The position numbers and the translations under genes are program-made. A DNA stretch of 64,000 nucleotides from Haliclystus octoradiatus. Taxonomy: Eukaryota; Cnidaria; Staurozoa; Stauromedusae; Haliclystidae. The stretch is taken from assembly GCA_916610825.1 (NCBI GenBank), contig OU744447.1, forward strand, positions 6,083,402 to 6,147,401. The letters run 5' to 3'. Below the pieces are notes generated by a model, which was given only the letters and a program-made list of their open reading frames with translations, was not told where the DNA came from and made no database searches. Shown here one piece after another: positions 15,315 to 42,500 of this stretch. The first letter of the stretch is position 1. The number at the start of each line of letters is the position of its first letter.

Positions 15315-15354
15315 TTGTCTGATGATTGCGTAAGCATGAAGCTATTAGTAACAA
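15315..15354 (+). ncRNA. Hammerhead-ribozyme-like motif, diverged copy
   Basis: Order of elements: stem I TTGT (15315-15318), core CTGATGA (15319-15325), stem II TGC/GCA with loop GTAA, core GAA, stem III GCT/AGT with loop ATT, residue A at the cleavage position (15350), stem I ACAA (15351-15354). Stem I and stem II differ from the other copies but still pair, which supports a structured RNA. The first stem III pair is G-U instead of A-U, so activity is doubtful. Downstream sequence (AGTCTTTGACTCC) matches the copy near 40.75 kb. Confidence 0.5.
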
Positions 15355-15493
15355 TTATGAATGTGTAGTCTTTGACTCCTTTTATTATATTTTATTATAT
15401 GTAACGTTATCTATATCTAAATGTATTGTGTAATACGTAAGTGAATGTTCCCTGTATTTACTAGTCAAATTTTTCTTTTTTTTTTTAATGACA

Positions 15494-15748
15494 AATATAT
15501 ACATACATACATACATACATACATACATACATACATATATACATACATACATACATACATACATACATACATACATGCATACATACATACATACATACAT
15601 ACATACATACATACATACATACATACATACATACATACATACATACATACATACATACATACATACATACATACATACATACATACATACATACATACAT
15701 ACATACATACATACATACATACATACATACATACATACATACATACAT
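15494..15748. repeat. (TACA)n microsatellite
   Basis: About 250 bp of tetranucleotide repeat with two interruptions (near 15537 and 15577). The Tyr/His/Ile/Thr and Met/Tyr/Val/Cys reading frames across it are artefacts of the repeat. Confidence 0.97.
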
Positions 15749-36500: not shown

Positions 36501-39500
36501 ATAGTAATAAATATTTGTTCCTTTCCCGTTCCTTGTGACGTAACACTTCTTTTTATATAACTCATATTGCACAGACAATGTTTAATATTTGCTTATATTA
36601 TACTATAATGCTAAACATACTTCTGTGGGAAACCTTTCGTCATTCATATCAACCATAGATTGTAAATAATGAGGATCTAAATGAATTAATTTATTATCTA
36701 AAAAGATAAAAAATAAAATAATGATATGACATAACGATGATAACACGTTCACTGCTCTGCTTCAAAGTTAGTTAATAGTTAGCAGCCATCTCCAAATGCA
36801 CTTTTGCATTTATGTAAACCCTGTTAGAAATTTTCATCGACGTGAAATTGCCCAATTGTCCATGAATAATTCATGAGGTCCAATGCCCCTCACCATTACA
36901 CTAAGGCTACATAGATGTTTAACAATGATGTTAAACCAACATTACTGATCTATACGATGTCCAGATAAAGCAACAGGTAAGTTGACCTCTACACAAGATT
37001 TACAAAAAATTTAATTATCAAATCTGAAAGCATGGGTTCGCTGCTAAGTTTCTGCAAAAAGTCCCAATGTTTGTATGTAGAGTTCGCAGCGTATCATAAT
37101 GGAAAAAATGATTAGCTTATGAATATGTAGAGAATTGAAGATATTTGGAGAAGAGCAAAAAGATGAAAGGTCATACAATACCTTGAAAACCAACAAAGTA
37201 TACAGAATGTCCAGGACGTCCACCAATAATTCCCATGCAATGATCTAGCGTCAACAAGTTCTAGTAAAAACAAAATAATCAAATATATGTTTGCATACTT
37301 TGTTGTAACTTGGCAGTTTGCCCACTCTGGTAGTGGTAGTACAGTACACAGATAATGTTGTCAAACACCAGTGAAGTTAGCAGGGTCCAACAAAGTCACA
37401 AAAAGTAAAAAAGGTTAAGCTTTCTGAGATCCTGGAACGTTTTAGCCTTTTTTCAGAATTGTTTTGTTGAATTGTATTATTGTAATCAATTATTTTGTGT
37501 TTATTACGTAAATCAGTCCTGTGAAAAAAAGTTATTGTAAAACTTATCAGGTTTCTGAATAAATGATAATGATGATGATGACATTTGATTTGATCTATAA
37601 ATCATAAAAATATCAATTTTCTTCTGAATCTGCTCTAGCCTTCTAGAATCTAGGATTCCATGATTGTTACTTTTGTTGGATCATGAGCAAATTGTACCTG
37701 ATTCTGACCCAGCTATTAAAGGGAGGTCAGTTCTCTGTTCTCTGACAGAGCAGTACCGACTGATGAATATAGATGGCCAGAAATAAGTAACTATCTAGTA
37801 CTGCTAAATATATACCTTTATACATGGAATATATATGTGATTAAAATGTTCACCACCAAGACGTACAGGAACCATAATAAGAACAGATTTCCAAGAATCA
37901 ACTTTTTCGTTATCTGTTGCCACAGGGGTACACATATCAATTACATCATCAATATATACTATAAATAGAGAAGAAAAATAATTTAAGAATAATCAGCTAG
38001 GTTAATAATTAGTATAATTAATATTTGAATAATAATTAGGCCTTCAGATAAGTAAATTTCATTTTTTTTCTGAAACAAAACAAAAAAGAAAAATGTGAAA
38101 AAATGTGTTGAGTTCATGAAAAGTTCATGAACTTTAAATGGCCCGATTTTCAATAATTTTTCATGAAGCGTCAACGAACAATTCATAAATAGTTCATGAA
38201 CTTTATAAACAGTTCATGGAAAGTTCATGAATGTTAAATGGCCTAAGGCTAGGGTTATATGTACGCACCGAACTCAATTGATTCATTCATTCGAATTAAA
38301 TCTCATGATAGCGCACTTCGTATAACATCATTCGGTTCATCAACATTCCTCAAAAAACATTAAGTGCGTCAAGCTAGCTCCGCACGTCAATCCTTGACCT
38401 GCGGAGCTCTTCTCAATGAATTAAATTCATCGCCGCGTTATACGAGCGAGCTATCATCGAAATACATTCGACTCACGGTGCTGTGACTGAGCTACTATAT
38501 CTACCTTATATGGCCATAAACCGGGGGATGTGCAAATCATAAATTATTTTAAAGGATGTTTCCATGGCAATACGATAGAAAGAACATCGCTTTTGGGATG
38601 TTGTTATGGTGACTTGTTTATATGATTGAAAGATGGCTGACAGGGAAGCTGATGTTTTCCAAAATCATGATTTAAAACATTTTATTTTAGTCAATCACAA
38701 TGCATCAGCACTAGAATTGGGGTCGCTTTTATCATAATATGTTATTTTAATGGAAATTTGCATTTAAATTGCTCTGAGTACTATGCCTTGTTAGAACAAA
38801 AACTGTCTCCCGCAAAAATGCTTGCAAACCTTTGAGATTACTACTTCATACAAGTTTCAAACTATAGATAAGCAAAATAGAACGGAAAAATCGCTGAAAA
38901 TGAAAAATAATGCAAACAAAACACTCTGGTTTCAAACCATGCGGTATAATTCCAAGAAAACTACTTCCTATCTCGTGACATTTTGGCCAGTTTTTAAAGA
39001 TCGTCGCCATTCGGTTCGTCTTTATAACCCCAAATGCGAATTTAATGCAATTCGGTGTCGCACCTAATTCGAATTGAGTTCGGTGCGTCCATATAACCCT
39101 AGCCTAATGTTCATCAAATGTTTTCATGAAAACTTAATGTAGTTCATGTACTGTTCATGAACAGTTCTTGAACATTAAATGGCTCCATTGACATTAAATT
39201 TTCATGGACTTTAAAAGGCCCAATGAACTTTTTCCATGAACTGCTTTTCAGGGGTTTTTCAGGGGTAAAAGATACCAACGTGATTCGCATTCATATCAAT
39301 TACCAGACCAATTTGATTGATTCTAAATCAATTTTAAGTAAGAAAACAAAGCTGTGCATGCAAACGAAGAAGTTTAACCAGAGGATGCATGTGGGGGCAT
39401 CTCCTTTATAGAAAGTTTATGATATGTGCAAAATCAGATTCTTACATCCCTTCTTGATTAAATAAGTTGTTGTTGATAAATGTATAAACATTGTGTTCTC

Positions 39501-42500
39501 CTGGTTATATGCTTACAGTGTAACCCACTTAAGTGCAATTCGGATAAGTGAAATTTCTGCTTATCTGCAACCTGAATCTGAAAACCTATAAACCATTTTC
39601 TGGTCAAATGTTTGCTAAGCAATTTCGGATAAGTGCATATTCGGATAAATGCAACTGAAATCGTTGGCAATTCTTACTTGCAGTTAAGCGGGTTACACTG
39701 TATTGTTTTTGTTGAGTCTTCTATATCCACATGACCACGGAAGACAGGTGGTCATTGTACAGAGGTATATAGGTCAAATAAGTTAATTCAACTAATTTGA
39801 AACTCACTTGTACAATCTTGAGCAACATAAATGCAAAAGCTCTTCAAATATGGATTGTCTGATTGCGCAAGTGCATTTCTGAAAGTAAAACACAAATTTT
39901 AATCATTGAATTTTAGAAAATTAAGTTTGGTACAATATTGAGACTGTGATCCAGTCAACCTAGCTTGATTAATTTTTCCTGTTTAATGTCCCAATTTGCA
40001 TTATATTCACAAACAAGGTTTTAGCTTCTATTCCCTTTACCTCATACAAACTATCATGTTCTACTTCATTCAATTCAATTTATTTTATTTAAACTCCTCG
40101 TTTCTGATTGAGCAATTATGTACAGTTTCAAACGTATGTTTTATTAGAAGCCGAGGCTGCAACGATGAAAAATGTGTTGAAACAATATTTAAAAAAAAAA
40201 GATTTTAGATAATACATTTCTAATACGTCTTCTATATCTTGTCCATTTAAATAAAAATAAAATAATAATAATAATAATAATAATAATAATAATAATAATA
40301 ATCATAATAATAATAATAATAATAATAATAATAATACTAATAATAATAATAATAATAATAATAATAATAATAATAATAATAATAATAATAATAATAATAA
40401 TAATAATAATAATAATAATAATAATAATAATAATAATAATAATAATAATAATAATAATAATAATAATAATAATAATAATAATAATAATAATAATAATAAT
40501 AATAATAATAATAATAATAATAATAATAATAATAATAATAATAATAATAATAATAATAATAATAATAATAATAATAATAATAATAATAATAATAATAATA
40601 ATAATAATAATAATAATAATAATAATAATAATAATAATAATAATAATAATAATAATATAATAAAGAAGTCAAAGACTACACATTTTGATACTGTTACTTA
40701 AAGTTTCACGCTTTATGCGATCCTCAGACAGTTAAGTAACAGTATCAAAATGTTAGTCTTTGACTTCTTTATTATATTTACAGCTCTGTCAACTGACATT
40801 GAGCACTGTTTTACTGCTATTAGATAATATCTAATAATAATAATAATAATAATAATAATAATAATAATAATAATAATAATAATATTAATAATAATAATAA
40901 TAATAATAATAATAATAATAATAATAATAATAATAATAATAATAATAATAATAATAATAATAATAATAATAATAATAATAATAATAATAATAATAATAAT
41001 AATAATAATAATAATAATAATAATAATAATAATAATAATAATAATAATAATAATAATAATAATAATAATAATAATAATAATAATAATAATAATAATATAA
41101 TAATTATAGGTTTATCTAATAGCAGACAAAATAGTGCTCAATGTCAACATTTGGCAGAGCGGTAAATAATAATAATGGTGATAGATCAAAGAAAACACAT
41201 TCTTTACTGTAACTCCAAGTTTCACGCTACTGCGATCATCAGACAGTTTTTTATTTTATTAGAATAAAAAACTGTCTGATGATCGCAGTAGCGTGAAACT
41301 TGGAGTTACAGTAAAGAATGTGTTTTCTTTGATCTATCACCATTATTATTAATAATAATAATAATAATAATAATAATAATAATAATAATAATAATAATAA
41401 TAATAATAATAATAATAATAATAATTTTGTAAAACATTTAACGTAGCTATGATGAAATGATGGTAAGTTAATGTCATTCAACTGAGATACCAATGCCTTT
41501 ATGGTTTTGTTGTTTTCTATCCCATGTTTTATACATAACGTATTGTAAATTCTAGATCCTGTGAGCTTAATAGAATCTCTATTATCAAAGTTTGTTTCAT
41601 ATGATGTTACTATTATATCCCTGCGTTTTGAGGCTTTGGTTTTTCCATGAGATATTGTATGGAAATAGTTCCGAAATGTATTTTGGTGCTTTTCCTTCTT
41701 TATATTGCCAGCGTAATTATTTAATGAAATTGTAGCAATTAATGTACCCTTGATAAATGTCCCCCTTTCATCTATAGGGGGGAATATTTTATTTCTAAAG
41801 TATGCCATTTTTGTATGAATTGCTCATGAGATTTTAGTGCAGTACAGTGCTGATAATGAGCAATGTTTATATAGTTGATGAATTGTTCACAAAATTTTAT
41901 AAATTTCACGCAGAGTTTTTATTAGTTTTCTCTTCTACTGTCATTGCTGATGAAAAATAGTTAGGATATAGACTTACAAAATTGGAATTGATTTACAAAA
42001 TATTTTCCTAATGAGATAGGACATTTGTTTCATTTTCTTATCATATGATTATTCAAAATACCACAGTGATATTTATTACATTGTCAATTTAACAGGAAAA
42101 TTAACTTCCATTTGATTGCTTTCTTACCTCAGAATAAGTGAAACAGAAGATGGACCATACCATGAACCTGCTTTGAAACCTAACTCTTCTCCTAATTCAA
42201 CCATGTGATGTAATGATAATGGACTATGAGATGTTGGTTCATCATTAAAAAAACGAAGAATCTATCAATGAAATTGTAGTAATATAACTCAGAAAAATGA
42301 AACTTGAATAATGAACTTGAAAATTATACAGTGAAACCTGTATATAACAGCCAGTTAGTTACAAGAGGTAGATAAATTGACCGCTATGTGCAGGTGACTT
42401 TTCTATATAGGGTTAATTCAATGGAAAATACCATTTTAGATCTTGCTAGAGTGACCATTATAGACAGGTGTTCGTTATATAGAGGTGACAATTATAACAG

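What the first reader, a model, noticed from the sequence alone, without database searches (positions are those of the whole stretch)
15315..41312. A family of minimal type I hammerhead-like ribozymes with covarying stems
Six ~40-nt motifs (15315-15354 +, 30053-30092 -, 30267-30308 +, 40690-40732 -, 41206-41247 -, 41271-41312 +) share the order stem I, CTGANGA, stem II, GAA (or mutated GGA in one), stem III, NUH, stem I. Stem I occurs as TTGC/GCAA, TTGT/ACAA and ACTGT/ACAGT. Stem II occurs as CGC/GCG and TGC/GCA with different loops. These paired changes argue for selection on RNA structure. All copies have a 3-bp stem III and a T-T mismatch next to stem II. Self-cleaving hammerheads are known from Penelope-like elements and animal retrozymes; this subfamily with the conserved mismatch may be new.
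Basis: partly seen in the sequence, partly recalled or inferred. Interest (0 to 1): 0.82.

Follow-up and report, generated by a model that had tools for sequence, protein, structure and literature searches.

The report
Dimer-type hammerhead ribozymes in Penelope retroelements
The six motifs are real hammerhead ribozymes of a kind already known, carried in thousands of copies by Penelope-type jumping genes, and the way these copies are inserted gives clues to how such elements copy themselves.

Summary
In detail: all six motifs are where stated, and a structural scan finds five intact ones against 0.0007 expected. The genome holds at least 4,875 matches to one degenerate U·U pattern (reversed control: 1). 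Stems I and II show compensatory changes.

[quoted passage not shown] tandem 2,525-bp units elsewhere in the genome carry hammerhead, leader and a 734-aa ORF with RT-like and GIY-YIG-like motifs seen by eye. This is a known kind. The U·U mismatch thought new was reported in 2011 and 2020; here G-C, U-A and A-U also occur at that pair.

Two results go further. Stem III covaries at a position that can pair only between two molecules, which argues for a dimeric ribozyme. Head-to-head insertions combine one short and one long end at two fixed sites: in one class 76 of 97 pairs have exactly one detected long end and none has two (P = 5e-12). Inner ends cluster at an initiator-like A 16-18 nt before the core. 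This fits both target strands being primed on element RNA at two different start sites, the ribozyme mostly uncut in the template. Cleavage itself could not be tested.

The parts
15315..15354 (+). hammerhead, TTGT/ACAA stem I, TGC/GCA stem II, GAAG instead of GAAA
   Evidence: leader after it lacks the GCTCTG long-end marker
29944..29959 (.). left copy of 16-bp target-site duplication ATAATGGCCAATTTAT
   Evidence: single in paralogous empty sites at 42.4 and 44.4 kb
29960..30307 (-). 348-bp mobile insertion: leader, hammerhead, spacer, leader, inverted hammerhead
30053..30092 (-). hammerhead with GGA (core mutated)
30267..30308 (+). hammerhead, inverted relative to the other; its last base overlaps the right target-site duplication
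30308..30323 (.). right copy of 16-bp target-site duplication
40690..40732 (-). hammerhead CTGAGGA, short leader to its left ending in (TAA)n
40734..40838 (+). inverted long-leader arm of the same insertion, with GCTCTG at 40782-40788 and ATTGAGCAC at 40798-40806; outer limits approximate
41167..41351 (.). 92-nt inverted repeat with 1-nt centre holding two hammerheads head to head; the left side runs on as the long end, the right side stops short
41206..41247 (-). hammerhead, long-end arm (ends +146 from core)
41271..41312 (+). hammerhead, short-end arm (ends +75 from core)
14042..14087 (-). eroded hammerhead (CTGTTGA core) with recognisable leader
32134..32219 (+). 5'-truncated copy: 3' half of a hammerhead plus leader

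Best explanation
[quoted passage not shown] the window copies are short, ORF-less insertions. Shown by sequence: in full-length relatives the hammerhead lies 16-18 nt after an initiator-like TTTCATtGAG-type site and about 200 nt before a long ORF in tandem 2.5-kb units; stem III is a palindrome whose middle pair covaries; insertions of three subfamilies end at about +75 to +85 (short) or +146 to +164 (long) from the core, and head-to-head insertions combine one short and one long end. Inferred: hammerheads of two units or molecules dimerise through stem III and cleave after GUA or GUU; the element's protein cuts both target strands and starts reverse transcription at two leader sites, one per strand; both cDNAs copy through the usually uncut hammerhead to the RNA 5' end and are joined, which makes the inverted repeats.
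For: Core, three stems and thousands of copies with empty or near-empty reversed controls. Stem II pairs not imposed by the pattern: 81 and 91 of 100 Watson-Crick against shuffle means 62.8 and 76.4. Stem III pair 4-6: 44 of 48 against 26.8, 0 of 10,000 shuffles; dimer folds -10.7 to -16.0 against -1.6 to -8.0 kcal/mol for two monomers. Tandem 2,525-bp units with a 734-aa ORF. Exactly one long end in 76 of 97 pairs, two in 0; second class 100 listed long-end hits of 208, no two on one pair. Target-site duplication with empty sites. Same biochemistry in an Anolis element: both strands cut and extended, two internal start sites (PMC11167929).
Against: No cleavage data. Rfam models do not score the motifs. 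No profile or structure search confirms the RT or GIY-YIG domain. Neither hammerhead fold nor dimer fold is the ViennaRNA minimum in the six sequences tried. On distinct strings the stem II excess is weaker (266 and 1,017 of 10,000 shuffles reach it). One pair is short/short (L124) and one rearranged (L065) of 18; 21 of 97 pairs show no long end. The initiator-like site as RNA 5' end is my reading, with no RNA data.
Confidence: 0.82

Rival explanations
1. They are non-autonomous animal retrozymes: short hammerhead repeats that are transcribed, self-cleaved, circularised and mobilised in trans.
For: Small ORF-less copies such as the 348-bp insertion and two same-strand hammerheads 368 bp apart in L050; retrozymes of 170-400 nt with type I hammerheads and a U.U mismatch are known (PMC7229834).
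Against: The same subfamilies carry a long ORF; neighbours under 700 bp apart are head-to-head in 28 of 48 cases and same-strand in 14, in loci partly chosen as pairs; 997 of 1,089 leader copies run uncut across the cleavage site.
Confidence: 0.12
2. Head-to-head insertions arise by self-priming on an antisense template, as proposed for rotifer Penelope elements, not by priming from both target strands.
For: Proposed for head-to-head palindromes in PMC3846280 (Discussion read); arms of one insertion are often near identical (within-pair median 2 differences, between 6, nine pairs).
Against: A copied-back arm should not reach further than its template arm, yet the long arm carries about 70 nt that the short arm lacks, in 76 of 97 pairs.
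Confidence: 0.2
3. Fossil or DNA-transposon-like foldback repeats without any RNA function.
For: Near-perfect inverted repeat at 41167-41351; many decayed copies, and a 53-bp satellite with mostly broken cores.
Against: Paired changes in stems and a dimer-only covariation; tandem units with a long ORF; ends fixed on the RNA-sense leader.
Confidence: 0.03

Closest known systems
Minimal type I hammerheads of Penelope-like elements (Cervera & de la Pena 2014; Lunse, Weinberg & Breaker 2017; both not held, known here through PMC7761336 passages, and PMC7229834)
   Same: Type I, very short stem III, small stem II, in pseudo-LTRs of Penelope-like elements, thousands per genome, thought to cleave as dimers
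   Different: No different in kind; U.U at the base of stem II is the main state here and the copies are chiefly head-to-head insertions
Hammerheads of Aedes, Nematostella and others with palindromic stem III and U10.1-U11.1 mismatch (PMC3088659, passages)
   Same: Same mismatch and same palindromic stem III, dimer form proposed
   Different: Here the dimer-only pair is shown to covary among many subfamilies of one genome
Poseidon element PAc of Anolis (PMC11167929, parts 1-2 of 4 and passages)
   Same: Hammerhead in the pLTR, two internal RT start sites, both target strands extended, AT-rich targets
   Different: ORF starts inside the hammerhead and the RT start lies in the ORF there; here both start sites lie downstream of the hammerhead in a leader before the ORF; the text reports no difference in start site between strands
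Penelope elements of the rotifer Adineta vaga (PMC3846280, passages and Discussion)
   Same: Inverted pLTRs, head-to-head palindromes, a tail optionally on one of the inverted pLTRs, target-site duplications
   Different: Few copies and shorter duplications (8-10 bp in the passages read); no genome-scale count of end combinations there
Animal retrozymes (PMC7229834, Introduction, Results parts 1-2 of 3, Discussion)
   Same: Type I hammerheads in short low-GC repeats; HHR_Amex2 has the same U.U mismatch
   Different: Those are mostly direct tandem repeats without ORF that give circular RNA

Membership tests
Hammerhead ribozyme, type I | Conserved core CUGANGA, GAA, NUH in the right order with stem I open | tested here: met
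   5 of 6 window motifs; 62 unique genome copies with GUA 50 or GUU 12
Hammerhead ribozyme, type I | Three helices supported by paired changes | tested here: met
   stems I and II; stem III as an intermolecular palindrome
Hammerhead ribozyme, type I | Match to Rfam hammerhead models | tested here: inconclusive
   No hit in the window; but a viral-contig motif with long stem III and all core features (L015) also gets none at E<=0.1, so the test looks insensitive to this form
Hammerhead ribozyme, type I | Self-cleavage at NUH | not testable with these tools
   needs in vitro transcription
Penelope-like element | RT domain | tested here: inconclusive
   RT-like FDIENFYPSI and YRDDG by eye; no profile hit; structure model pLDDT 31.6
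Penelope-like element | GIY-YIG endonuclease domain | tested here: inconclusive
   IYKA...YIGLT by eye; only phrog_20015 'endonuclease' at E 0.18, residues 608-643
Penelope-like element | Pseudo-LTRs in tandem or inverted order | tested here: met
   tandem units L048/L049; inverted pairs
Penelope-like element | Optional tail at insertion ends and target-site duplication | tested here: met
   short and long ends; 16-bp duplication of the 348-bp insertion; duplications of ten other pairs unreadable or doubtful in simple repeats
Animal retrozyme | Short non-coding direct tandem repeats | tested here: inconclusive
   same-strand neighbours 14 of 48, head-to-head 28 of 48; ORF-bearing relatives exist; small ORF-less copies also exist
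Animal retrozyme | Circular RNA of unit length | not testable with these tools
   no RNA data

The most novel reading that the evidence does not exclude
Insertion of these elements is a coordinated two-start reaction: two RT subunits on one RNA begin at two fixed leader sites about 70 nt apart, one for each cut target strand, so a simple insertion carries one short and one long end. The hammerhead at the very 5' end of the RNA is normally held uncut in the template and cut in only a minority of templates.
Probability: 0.4. Interest if true: 0.65.

Novelty: new member of a known kind. Interest (0 to 1): 0.42.

Why it matters
The activity and role of minimal hammerheads in Penelope-like elements are called a mystery in a review (PMC7761336, passages). 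This genome, with thousands of copies in many subfamilies, is a natural experiment: it shows covariation that only a dimer explains, suggests that most inserted copies came from RNA uncut at this site, and places two probable reverse-transcription start sites and a probable RNA 5' end within a few bases. All of this can be tested in vitro.

Tried and rejected
Rfam on the window: only microRNA and snoRNA-like matches below threshold, some on the 41.2-kb inverted repeat; not taken as evidence. Core pattern in viral and prokaryote collections: 28 viral and 11 prokaryote stretches; several viral ones look like hammerheads by eye; the prokaryote number is about what chance gives by a rough estimate of mine that no call made. 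Relatives of the ORF in viral contigs: none confirmed among 133 pattern matches. AlphaFold2 on three sequences failed (pLDDT 31.6), so no fold search was run. The pairing percentages come from a set filtered on pairing and are used only for the variety of pairs; the unfiltered test is. The 53-bp satellite in L108 was not pursued: most units have a broken core. Duplication search in ten other pairs mostly met simple repeats. The organism was not identified; similarity of one fragment to ATG4A/B structures does not place it. The tail-to-tail control pattern did not complete.
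Full report
Observation. The six motifs exist as described. A scanner that asks for CTGANGA, a stem II of 3 bp or more with at most one mismatched pair at its base, GAA, stem III, UH and a 4-bp stem I finds five in the window; 1,500 Markov-1 sequences give a mean of 0.0007. The sixth has GGA and is missed. Two further relics, at 14042-14087 (-) and from 32134 (+), belong to the family. The 41206 and 41271 motifs are in the arms of one 92-nt inverted repeat. Rfam lists no hammerhead in the window.

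Genome scale. The window lies in a 262-Mb, 33-contig genome (G000) of an organism I did not identify. A core pattern with stem II TCGC...GCGT has 2,733 exact matches and none reversed. With any base at 10.1 and 11.1 there are 3,434. With T at both and any bases at two stem II pairs there are 4,875, and 1 in the reversed control. Listings show only the first places of a genome, here on contig C1.

Covariation. In the 100 places listed, where two stem II pairs are free, 81 and 91 are Watson-Crick against shuffle means of 62.8 and 76.4; none of 10,000 shuffles reaches either. On the 49 distinct strings the excess is weaker: 34 and 40 of 49, reached in 266 and 1,017 of 10,000. Among 62 unique hammerheads from the fetched loci and the window (64 strings, two of a different GUC-type dropped), stem I occurs as CTGT/ACAG 20, TTGC/GCAA 14, CCGT/ACGG 8, TCGC/GCGG 3, TTGT/ACAA 3 and others; stem II as CGC/GCG, CAC/GTG, TGC/GCA and CGT/ACG. 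That set was filtered on pairing, so only the variety of pairs counts.

The mismatch. At 10.1-11.1 the 62 show T.T 46, T-A 6, G-C 6, A-T 2, G.T 1, T.C 1. U.U is thus the main state of a pair that is Watson-Crick in sister subfamilies. A U10.1-U11.1 mismatch in natural hammerheads, with the note that it supports more cleavage than other mispairs, is in PMC3088659 (passages); the axolotl HHR_Amex2 has it too (PMC7229834, Results part 2 of 3). It also occurs in a motif of a viral contig found here (L015; pattern chosen to have it).

Stem III and dimers. In 48 unique copies with a 9-nt stem III segment, positions 4 and 6 pair in 44 (T-A 18, C-G 12, A-T 8, T.G 6); shuffles average 26.8 and none of 10,000 reaches 44. 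On the 20 distinct 9-mers it is 16, reached in 16 of 20,000. Related copies are not independent, so these are not strict probabilities. Within one molecule this pair would close a one-base loop; it can form only between two copies. For eight 9-mers the 3-bp hairpin is +2.1 kcal/mol and the self-duplex -3.4 to -9.7. For six whole hammerheads the dimer fold scores -10.7 to -16.0 against -1.6 to -8.0 for two monomers; other folds are predicted to be more stable than either. Palindromic stem III and dimers were proposed before (PMC3088659 supplement legend; review PMC6466107, passages).

The carrier. On C1 near 11.27 Mb hammerheads recur at 2,525-bp spacing. Units have the hammerhead, about 200 nt of leader and a 734-aa ORF; related ORFs of 721 and 623 aa are in L051 and L053, 75% and 83% identical. 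By eye they hold RT-like FDIENFYPSI and YRDDG, a CxC stretch and a C-terminal IYKA...YIGLT, the layout of a Penelope-like element; the motif names are recalled. No profile search confirmed this and the structure model is unusable. The hammerhead of the 41.2-kb insertion is that of the L053 element. The 348-bp insertion at 29960-30307 is flanked by a 16-bp direct repeat that is single in two paralogous empty sites.

Ends of insertions. Copies were aligned to four element references. That inner position is the A of TTTCATTGAG (two subfamilies) or TTTCATAGA (the third), an initiator-like site by my reading. The fourth reference aligns mostly other subfamilies and gives scattered ends. Eighteen head-to-head pairs have both arms placed: 16 have one short and one longer arm, 1 is S/S (L124), 1 is rearranged (L065), none is long/long; in 10 of the 16 the longer arm ends at +146 to +164, in 2 it is itself the reference, in 4 it ends at +105 to +401. 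Left out: L059 (cut by the locus ends) and the inner pair of the L048/L049 array, whose outermost copies are L (+158) and S (+81) in the stretch held; the left neighbour of that stretch was not seen.

Genome-wide count of ends. The CTGAAGA class has 97 close head-to-head pairs. GCTCTG, the marker of the long end, lies at the expected distance on one side in 76 and on both sides in 0; 21 show none. Random placement would give 14.8 doubles; P(0) = 5e-12. The CTGATGA class has 250 pairs and 208 one-sided hits. The 100 listed hits contain no two on one pair; for the stretch where all pairs are also listed, 41 hits fall on 50 pairs, P = 2.7e-7. The other 108 hits were not seen. Mutated markers can hide a long end.

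Is the ribozyme cut in the template? Of 1,128 exact copies of one leader start, 1,089 keep the ACA before it, and 997 of those keep GTA across the cleavage site; 6 have GTB. So about 92% of these copies came from RNA continuous across that site. The loss at the site (92 of 1,089) exceeds the loss three bases further in (39 of 1,128; Fisher P = 5e-7), and one fetched copy (L126, minus strand) has an arm that begins at the cleavage site. A minority of cut templates is possible, not shown; unequal mutation could also explain the difference.

Mechanism. An Anolis Penelope-like protein cuts and extends both target strands, starts at two internal RNA sites and does not need hammerhead cleavage in vitro; its hammerhead is protein-assisted (PMC11167929, parts 1-2 of 4). 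Applied here, one cDNA starts at S and one at L, each runs to the RNA 5' end, and joining yields the head-to-head repeats. That the two ends so regularly differ suggests coordination, although that paper reports no difference in start site between strands. Arms of one insertion tend to be alike (nine pairs: median 2 differences, between insertions 6), as one source RNA or later conversion would give. Self-priming on an antisense template (PMC3846280) does not by itself give unequal outer ends. That paper already notes a tail on one of two inverted pLTRs; in the passages read and in the listings of searches I saw no genome-scale count of end combinations.

Verdict. A correct finding of a known kind. 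The claimed new feature is known; the more interesting facts are the dimer-only covariation and the one-short-one-long rule.

Noticed in passing
L108:462-1365 (G000:C1, about 567.3-568.2 kb): A 53-bp satellite, 17 copies, made of hammerhead-derived units, most with a broken core.
   Followed up: partly
L089 (G000:C1:4616178 + and 4618125 -): Two copies of a different hammerhead-like motif (AGGC..GGCC stem II, GUC site, longer stem III segment) near Penelope-type copies.
   Followed up: no
L015 and other viral contigs (L001-L028): Hammerhead-like motifs with the same U.U base of stem II in presumed phage contigs; L015 has two copies 518 bp apart. Rfam does not list them at E<=0.1 in the six loci tried, five of them viral.
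   Followed up: partly
window 3-9212 (+): A 3,070-codon open frame made largely of a degenerate repeat (SVTPTHASPVDNEPHQDYPDPRAMMVTRTPTRPKSPEEEERDSPILRT).
   Followed up: no
window 29900-29959, 42320-42490, 44380-44490, 34499-34941: Another dispersed repeat family (…AAAGGCCACCTGTCTATAATGGCCAATTTAT…) that served as target of the 348-bp insertion.
   Followed up: partly
L051:203-1378 (-): Fragment of a second Penelope-like ORF (RYVDDT, YCFQCDLCDASYVG), partly masked in the record, beside the hammerhead-bearing element.
   Followed up: no
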